From contig CP046106.1 of assembly GCA_013343275.1 (NCBI GenBank), forward strand, positions 310,001 through 374,000: a DNA stretch of 64,000 nucleotides. The letters run 5' to 3'. Positions 10,397 through 26,572 of this stretch are shown here, piece after piece. The translations under genes were made by a program, and so were the position numbers. The stretch's first letter is position 1; every line of letters starts with the position of its first letter. The DNA is from Candidatus Nanohaloarchaea archaeon (GTDB lineage Archaea > Nanohalarchaeota > Nanosalinia > Nanosalinales > Nanosalinaceae). The notes under the pieces were generated by a model, which did not search any database, was not told the DNA's origin, and worked only from the letters and a program-made list of their open reading frames with translations.

Positions 10397-10525
10397 TGGA
10401 CCACCCGGGGTTCGAACCCGGGACCGCCGCCTCTCTTCGAGGCCATCGCACTGGCGTGTTTCAGCAACGTTTTTCAGTACGAGGTCCGTATAAGGACGGT
10501 GCTCTAACCCCTGAGCTAGTGGTCC
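10397..10525 (-). tRNA. Intron-containing tRNA, best read as tRNA-Ile (UAU)
   Basis: The minus strand gives acceptor GGACCAC/GTGGTCC, D stem GCTC/GAGC with an AGGGGTTA loop, T arm CCGGG TTCGAAC CCCGG and discriminator A. The anticodon stem closes only after removing about 53 nt: CCGTC (27-31) pairs with GGCGG (39-43) in the 3' exon, leaving loop C-T-T-A-T-A plus A, i.e. anticodon TAT with the intron at the canonical 37/38 site. The intron contains a GTACTG/CAGTGC stem. CCA is not encoded. The splice sites are inferred and the bulge-helix-bulge pairing is imperfect, so the anticodon call is less certain than the tRNA call. Confidence 0.75.
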
Positions 10526-10638
10526 AAGACTCCTCTATTACATGCAGTTCCTGCGTAAATTAAAAAACCTTTACAGGCTCAGGCAAGTTTCCGGGCTAAA
10601 ATGTTTTATTTCAGAGGAAGAATTCCTTATTGTTATCT

Positions 10639-25996: not shown

Positions 25997-26572
25997 TTAA
26001 AGAAGCGAAGAGGCCTTGCTGAGAGCCTCTTTCTCAATCTTTTCATAGAGATCAAGTGCTGTAGACCAGGCAGGTTCAAGCCGATCCCATGAGATATAGG
26101 CGACACCCAGTCCTATCGCTGCTGCTGCGATCGAACCCAGAATATCGACAGGCCAGTGCTCTCCTACATAGATACGGGCGAAACCTGTAAGAACTGCCGC
26201 AGCAGTTAGAAGCCATCCCAGCCTTTCTCTGTTCCTGTAGATCAGTGGAAATGCTGTTCCGAAAACTGCTGCCGTATGCTGGCTGGGGAAAGAGTTCTCT
26301 GCGTGGAACTCAATCAGTGTACTGTAGGTCGCTGACGGGTTTTCATGGAAGTAGAGAAGGCTCATTACGTAGGCAATACCAATGGTCAGAACCGAGGTGT
26401 AGAACGTGAAAAGTGCGTCCTCCTTCCTTTCACGGCCCTGGAACCATAGATAGATCAAGGATAGAGGAACCAGGAGAACAAGGGCTTCTGCCAGGAGAAG
26501 CATGGTTTGATCGATTAGACCTATACCCGTCAGGCCCTGGATCTTGAGGAAAAGGGCCTCATTAAGCGACAT
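25997..26572 (-). CDS. PAP2-family membrane phosphatase
   Basis: A 191-aa protein with about five membrane helices. The PAP2 catalytic motifs are present: SFPSQHTAA near 93-101 (motif 2, with the His) and RIYVGEHWPVDILGS near 133-147 (motif 3, with the nucleophilic His). The first lysine motif is weak. Such enzymes dephosphorylate polyprenyl diphosphates or phosphatidate; a role in recycling the lipid carrier for surface glycosylation is plausible but inferred. Confidence 0.85.
   Translation of the reverse strand: MSLNEALFLKIQGLTGIGLIDQTMLLLAEALVLLVPLSLIYLWFQGRERKEDALFTFYTSVLTIGIAYVMSLLYFHENPSATYSTLIEFHAENSFPSQHTAAVFGTAFPLIYRNRERLGWLLTAAAVLTGFARIYVGEHWPVDILGSIAAAAIGLGVAYISWDRLEPAWSTALDLYEKIEKEALSKASSLL

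What the first reader, a model, noticed from the sequence alone, without database searches (positions are those of the whole stretch)
10397..10525. Probable tRNA-Ile with UAU anticodon and an intron
Removing a ~53-nt intron at 37/38 gives a clean cloverleaf with anticodon UAU. Most archaea read AUA with a CAU anticodon carrying agmatidine (TiaS); a genomic UAU tRNA-Ile is rare and known from a few reduced archaea. If right, this lineage may not need TiaS.
Basis: partly seen in the sequence, partly recalled or inferred. Interest (0 to 1): 0.6.

Follow-up and report, generated by a model that had tools for sequence, protein, structure and literature searches.

The report
Intron-bearing UAU isoleucine tRNA
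This is a real, intron-containing isoleucine tRNA that reads the codon AUA with a plain UAU anticodon; it appears throughout the salt-loving Nanohaloarchaeota, whose genomes lack the enzyme (TiaS) and the tRNA that most archaea use for this codon, so a decoding solution thought to be rare in archaea is the rule in this phylum.

Summary
Minus strand 10525-10397 is a tRNA gene (Rfam tRNA, 49.9 bits). Removing a 56-nt intron at 37/38 gives a clean 73-nt cloverleaf with loop CU-UAU-AA. The other possible 7-nt loops give only Leu or Ser anticodons, which do not fit this type I tRNA. The genome is a 0.92-Mb nanohaloarchaeon. The pattern covers the phylum: 22 of 28 genomes, and all 12 near-complete ones, carry this tRNA with a 37/38 intron, while none has a credible TiaS. 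The exons are nearly invariant; the introns diverge but keep a covarying stem and the bulge-helix-bulge pairing. AUA is the commonest Ile codon (44%). As in Nanoarchaeum equitans and Korarchaeum, no C34-modifying enzyme is needed. How AUG is not misread is unknown. It cannot rest on Elp3 everywhere, because six genomes with this tRNA lack Elp3. The intron pairs with the anticodon, as in yeast tRNA-Ile(UAU), where it directs pseudouridine-34; that parallel is untested. This is a new, phylum-scale member of a known kind.

The parts
10489..10525 (-). 5' exon of tRNA-Ile(UAU), positions 1-37: GGACCAC TA GCTC AGGGGTTA GAGC A CCGTC CTTATA
   Evidence: cmscan RF00005 49.9 bits; manual parse and pairing counts
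10490..10492 (-). anticodon UAU (positions 34-36)
   Evidence: read from the parsed loop CU-UAU-A^A; the same in 21 other genomes of the phylum
10433..10488 (-). 56-nt intron at the canonical 37/38 position; relaxed bulge-helix-bulge junction (central helix C32-U33-U34 with G-A-A, A35 mismatched here)
   Evidence: central helix pairs at 3-4 of 4 positions in all 21 introns tested; fold of alignment
10447..10481 (-). intron stem CGTACTG/CAGTGCG with A-rich bulge and small apical hairpin
   Evidence: 7-bp helix with 2-4 standard pair types per pair across 13 family-1 sequences
10397..10432 (-). 3' exon, positions 38-73: A GGCGG CGGTC CCGGG TTCGAAC CCCGG GTGGTCC A; no encoded CCA

Best explanation
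The gene encodes tRNA-Ile3(UAU), the sole decoder of AUA in this nanohaloarchaeon. It is transcribed with a 37/38 intron that folds into a relaxed bulge-helix-bulge, cut by the archaeal splicing endonuclease and religated. The mature tRNA carries U34 instead of agmatidine-modified C34, so IleRS can charge it without TiaS, and TiaS plus tRNA-Ile2(CAU) have been lost or replaced across the phylum. Shown by sequence: the cloverleaf, anticodon and intron position, their conservation across the phylum, the absence of TiaS and Ile2(CAU), and heavy AUA use. Inferred: splicing, isoleucylation and AUA decoding. Unknown: how U34 is kept from reading AUG. The most likely answer is a U34 modification or ribosome adaptation that does not universally require Elp3.
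For: Cloverleaf and Rfam score. TiaS absent in own genome and phylum while archaeal controls ring. CAU tRNAs are only iMet (A1-U72, three G-C pairs in the anticodon stem) and intron-bearing eMet; two further pattern searches for CAU tRNAs with longer introns gave no additional CAU tRNA. UAU tRNA verified in 22 of 28 phylum genomes, all 12 near-complete ones included. Central helix of the splice motif kept and intron stem covaries. AUA = 453 of 1,033 Ile codons in window ORFs, so a working AUA decoder is essential. One IleRS ORF scores above the family cut-off in the own genome. Precedent: UAU tRNA with no Ile2(CAU) in N. equitans and K. cryptofilum (PMC8450103, PMC6000648).
Against: No RNA data: splicing, charging and codon reading are not shown. 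The window's own central helix has one mismatch (A35-G). Haloarchaeal tRNA-Ile mutated to U34 causes mistranslation (Mandal 2014, as summarised in PMC7694415), so a simple U34 swap in a halophile needs something extra. UAU was not detected in families f3 and f5, whose genomes are only 61-78% complete. The CAU search is by pattern, so a CAU tRNA with both an unusual D-arm and an intron above about 65 nt could have been missed.
Confidence: 0.93

Rival explanations
1. Intron-dependent wobble modification: the intron, by pairing with C32-A35 in the pre-tRNA, directs a U34 modification (pseudouridine, as Pus1 does on yeast pre-tRNA-Ile(UAU)) that lets the tRNA read AUA but not AUG. This adds to the best explanation rather than replacing it.
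For: All 22 verified UAU genes carry a 37/38 intron; U34 is inside the central helix; yeast Psi34/36 formation needs the intron-anticodon helix (PMC11408192). K. cryptofilum's UAU tRNA also has an intron (PMC6000648). Families f2 and f4 lack Elp3, so an Elp3-type modification cannot explain them.
Against: Every 37/38 archaeal intron pairs with the anticodon loop, so the pairing is expected from splicing alone. No pseudouridine synthase was tested. No conserved box C/D or H/ACA guide is visible in this intron, unlike the eMet intron.
Confidence: 0.15
2. Elp3-dependent xm5U34 (such as cm5U or cnm5U) on this tRNA gives the AUA/AUG discrimination.
For: Elp3 is present with about 590-644 bits (complete copies) in family f1, the window's genome included; archaeal Elp3 makes cm5U34 (cited in PMC6313347).
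Against: f2 and all five f4 genomes carry the same tRNA without Elp3, and N. equitans, which also has a UAU tRNA, lacks Elp3 (PMC2584109). Haloarchaeal U34 mutant tRNA-Ile carrying cnm5U still gave mistranslation (PMC7694415).
Confidence: 0.3
3. A different intron placement makes this a tRNA-Leu(UAA) or tRNA-Ser.
For: Shifting the junction by two or more bases gives UAA, UGA or AGA arithmetically.
Against: Type I tRNA with a 5-nt variable loop; intact Leu(UAA) and Ser(UGA) genes exist; the central helix supports 37/38 in 21 of 21 introns tested; A37-A38 and A73 are as expected for Ile.
Confidence: 0.02

Closest known systems
tRNA-Ile(UAU) of Nanoarchaeum equitans and Ca. Korarchaeum cryptofilum (PMC6000648, PMC8450103)
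   Same: UAU anticodon in place of tRNA-Ile2(CAU); in Korarchaeum also a single intron; N. equitans likewise lacks Elp3 (PMC2584109) and has a C/D guide in its eMet intron (PMC3491384), as several nanohaloarchaeal families do.
   Different: Those are two isolated genomes among 167 surveyed; here the trait covers a phylum of extreme halophiles, with AUA as the commonest Ile codon. Sequence relatedness to those two tRNAs was not tested.
Bacterial tRNA-Ile(UAU) (Mycoplasma, Bifidobacterium, Neorickettsia, lactic acid bacteria; PMC8450103, PMC9976931)
   Same: UAU replaces the CAU tRNA plus its C34-modifying enzyme.
   Different: Bacterial system (TilS/lysidine). L. plantarum keeps redundant CAU and UAU tRNAs.
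Eukaryotic (yeast) tRNA-Ile(UAU) with intron-dependent Psi34/Psi36 (PMC11408192)
   Same: UAU anticodon, 37/38 intron, intron pairing with the anticodon region.
   Different: Works beside an IAU tRNA in eukaryotes; no Psi34 evidence here.
Archaeal tRNA-Ile2(CAU) with agmatidine and TiaS
   Same: Decodes AUA as Ile.
   Different: Neither the CAU gene nor TiaS was found here.

Membership tests
tRNA-Ile3(UAU) replacing Ile2(CAU) | spliced anticodon UAU in a canonical loop (Y32 U33 ... A37 A38) | tested here: met
tRNA-Ile3(UAU) replacing Ile2(CAU) | no tRNA-Ile2(CAU) in the genome | tested here: met
   only iMet and eMet have CAU; (pattern searches; limits stated)
tRNA-Ile3(UAU) replacing Ile2(CAU) | no TiaS gene | tested here: met
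   TiaS absent in own genome and phylum; TilS was not searched
tRNA-Ile3(UAU) replacing Ile2(CAU) | charged with Ile and reads AUA but not AUG | not testable with these tools
   needs charging and ribosome assays
Archaeal BHB tRNA intron | intron at 37/38 with 4-bp central helix and flanking 3-nt bulges | tested here: met
   3/4 pairs in the window, 3-4/4 in all 21; relaxed form with one mismatch in the window
Agmatidine/TiaS AUA decoding | CAU tRNA-Ile2 plus TiaS | tested here: not met
Intron-dependent Psi34 tRNA-Ile(UAU) (yeast type) | intron-anticodon helix containing U34 | tested here: met
   but expected of any 37/38 intron
Intron-dependent Psi34 tRNA-Ile(UAU) (yeast type) | Pus1-family enzyme and Psi34 | not tested

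The most novel reading that the evidence does not exclude
In Nanohaloarchaeota the conserved intron of tRNA-Ile(UAU) is kept because it is needed to modify or shield U34 before splicing. That would be an archaeal counterpart of yeast intron-dependent wobble modification, replacing agmatidine as the way to tell AUA from AUG without Elp3.
Probability: 0.13. Interest if true: 0.8.

Novelty: new member of a known kind. Interest (0 to 1): 0.5.

Why it matters
[quoted passage not shown] Here most of a phylum of extreme halophiles does without them, and in the window AUA is the commonest Ile codon. U34 mutants of haloarchaeal tRNA-Ile are reported to mistranslate (PMC7694415), so these symbionts must have solved AUA/AUG discrimination another way. 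The solution exists both with Elp3 (f1) and without it (f2, f4), which makes the question directly testable. It also warns that annotation tools run without intron support miss this tRNA.

Tried and rejected
Default ARAGORN and the RF00005 whole-genome search both missed the gene because of its intron. Alternative intron placements were rejected (Leu/Ser, type I arm). A CAU hit at C1:9267 proved to be an intron-bearing tRNA with a different anticodon, apparently Gln; the other CAU-plus-T-arm matches fail the T-stem test. G001's first UAU pattern hit (L102) is probably tRNA-Thr(UGU) with an intron, not Ile; its real UAU tRNA is L222 with two introns. A guide-RNA function of the UAU intron: no conserved C/D or H/ACA boxes seen. 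An alternative pre-tRNA fold (GUCC/GGAC and GCC/GGC hairpins) is predicted as the minimum-energy fold for some sequences, but the conserved GGAC and GCC are also explained by the BHB-adjoining intron helix with a bulged A; not resolved. No contig of the viral collection holds the exact exon stretch. TiaS could not be mapped in other DPANN phyla because 'of' accepts only G handles. Agmatine synthesis, TruA/Pus and IleRS residue changes were not tested.

Full report
Observation. The stretch 10397-10525 read on the minus strand is a tRNA gene. Rfam's tRNA model scores 49.9 bits over its full length; ARAGORN without introns does not see it, with introns it calls tRNA-Ile(tat). The parse is GGACCAC TA GCTC AGGGGTTA GAGC A CCGTC CTTATA ^56-nt intron^ A GGCGG CGGTC CCGGG TTCGAAC CCCGG GTGGTCC A: acceptor 7/7, T-stem 5/5, anticodon stem 5/5 with one U-G. 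The anticodon is UAU for a junction at 36/37, 37/38 or 38/39; other shifts give UAA, UGA or AGA, which belong to long-variable-arm tRNAs; Leu(UAA) and Ser(UGA) genes are encoded elsewhere. The mature tRNA has the Ile-like A37, A38 and A73.

Source. The window is G000:C1:310001-374000 of a one-contig 915,886-bp genome, 96.5% complete. A proteasome alpha protein from the window places it in Nanohaloarchaeota: best named relatives are B1/PL-Br10 MAGs, SG9, Nanosalina and Nanosalinarum, 67-79% identical. In eight of these loci the same tRNA sits upstream of the proteasome gene on the opposite strand.

TiaS (NCBIfam NF040849) gives only a 33-residue, 10.8-bit match in the own genome, while M. jannaschii, H. 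volcanii, S. acidocaldarius and M. acetivorans ring. Over the 28 genomes of the phylum, 24 have nothing at E <= 1e-3 and four have fragments of 17-21 bits in the C-terminal half of the model, one of them full of stops. For tRNA-Ile2(CAU), the tRNA set shows two CAU genes: L023 has A1-U72 and a three-G-C anticodon stem (initiator), L018 has an intron and is the elongator. A D-arm-plus-CAU pattern finds one tRNA-like elongator of the form GCTGCG-CTCATA (or near it) in most phylum genomes, own included, and no second one. T-arm-anchored CAU patterns with spacers of 14-44 and 45-75 bases add no further CAU tRNA in the own genome (T-stem check). So neither component of the usual system was found.

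Distribution. A pattern for the UAU 5' half, fetching and parsing give full cloverleafs with a 37/38 intron in 16 of 19 family f1 genomes and all five f4 genomes. A further search finds it in f2 genome G001, there with a second intron in the D-loop. That is 22 of 28 genomes and all 12 that are at least 90% complete. f3 and f5, and three f1 genomes, gave none; they are 61-85% complete. The exons are nearly invariant between f1 and f4 (window against f4: 92%; G001 of f2 is more distant, 73%), whereas introns range from 37 to 146 nt.

Intron. In all 21 introns tested, three or four of the four central-helix pairs (32-35 with intron -6 to -3) form. In an alignment of 13 f1 sequences with the anticodon stem imposed, C32-G pairs in 13/13, U33-A in 12/13, U34-A/G in 11/13, and the intron stem covaries with 2-4 pair types per position. 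This is the expected splice substrate. Some sequences also have a lower-energy alternative with GUCC/GGAC and GCC/GGC hairpins; its meaning is open.

Function. AUA is 453 of 1,033 Ile codons (44%) in 52 window ORFs, against 335 AUG, so AUA must be read efficiently and AUG must be spared. A genomic U34 removes the need for agmatidine both for IleRS recognition and for pairing with A, but U34 could also pair with G. Review PMC7694415 states that U34 mutants of haloarchaeal tRNA-Ile mistranslate and carry cnm5U. In f1 a strong Elp3 is present (about 590-644 bits for complete copies); f2 and all five f4 genomes lack it. N. equitans, another UAU archaeon, lacks Elp3 too (PMC2584109). Elp3 chemistry therefore cannot be the universal answer. 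In yeast, Psi34 and Psi36 of tRNA-Ile(UAU) are made only on the intron-containing precursor in which intron and anticodon pair (PMC11408192). The archaeal intron makes a similar pairing, but any 37/38 intron does, so this is a lead and not evidence.

Known and new. Wu et al. found tRNA-Ile(UAU) in 2 of 167 archaeal genomes (PMC6000648), and tRNAscan-SE 2.0 names the same two (PMC8450103). No paper found in the held library reports it for Nanohaloarchaeota. I file it as a new member of a known kind at phylum scale. The tRNA's nearest hits in plasmid and phage collections include bacterial tRNA-Ile(GAU) genes sharing the unusual CCGTC/GGCGG stem (87.5% over 56 nt), against 68% to its own tRNA-Ile(GAU) and 74% to its own eMet (whole-length figures, so not strictly comparable). 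Those collections are biased towards bacteria and archaeal Ile2 was not available, so origin is unresolved.

Noticed in passing
L018 (G000:C1:497424-497566, minus) and L153-L181: The intron of elongator tRNA-Met(CAU) looks like a box C/D guide: TTRTGAGY complementary to the tRNA's own GCTCATAA, directly before a D-like box, with the nucleotide 5 upstream of box D (G) opposite C34 in 14 of 14 introns checked, predicting Cm34. N. equitans has a C/D RNA in the same intron (PMC3491384).
   Followed up: partly
G001, G003-G007 (families f2, f4): Elp3 is missing from these Nanohaloarchaeota families but strong in all f1 genomes and in G009.
   Followed up: partly
L222 (G001:C3 about 26060-26190): The tRNA-Ile(UAU) of G001 has two introns, one in the D-loop (about 21 nt) and one at 37/38.
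   Followed up: partly
L036 and L037 (G000:C1 11428-11729 and 9163-9418): Two similar tRNA genes, probably both Gln, with introns outside the usual 37/38 site; ARAGORN miscalls them as Ala/Pro when introns are allowed.
   Followed up: no
window 10555-10569, minus strand: A/T-rich GGTTTTTTAATTTACG about 35 nt upstream of the tRNA 5' end, possibly its TATA box.
   Followed up: no
window 10397-10525 compared with plasmid and phage tRNAs: The exons resemble bacterial tRNA-Ile(GAU) (87.5% over 56 nt, same CCGTC/GGCGG stem) more than the genome's own tRNA-Ile(GAU) (68%).
   Followed up: partly
intron of the UAU tRNA, positions 2-5 and near the 3' end: GGAC at the intron start is complementary to exon GUCC (29-32), and GCC near the intron end to exon GGC (39-41); predicted folds can use either set of pairs.
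   Followed up: partly
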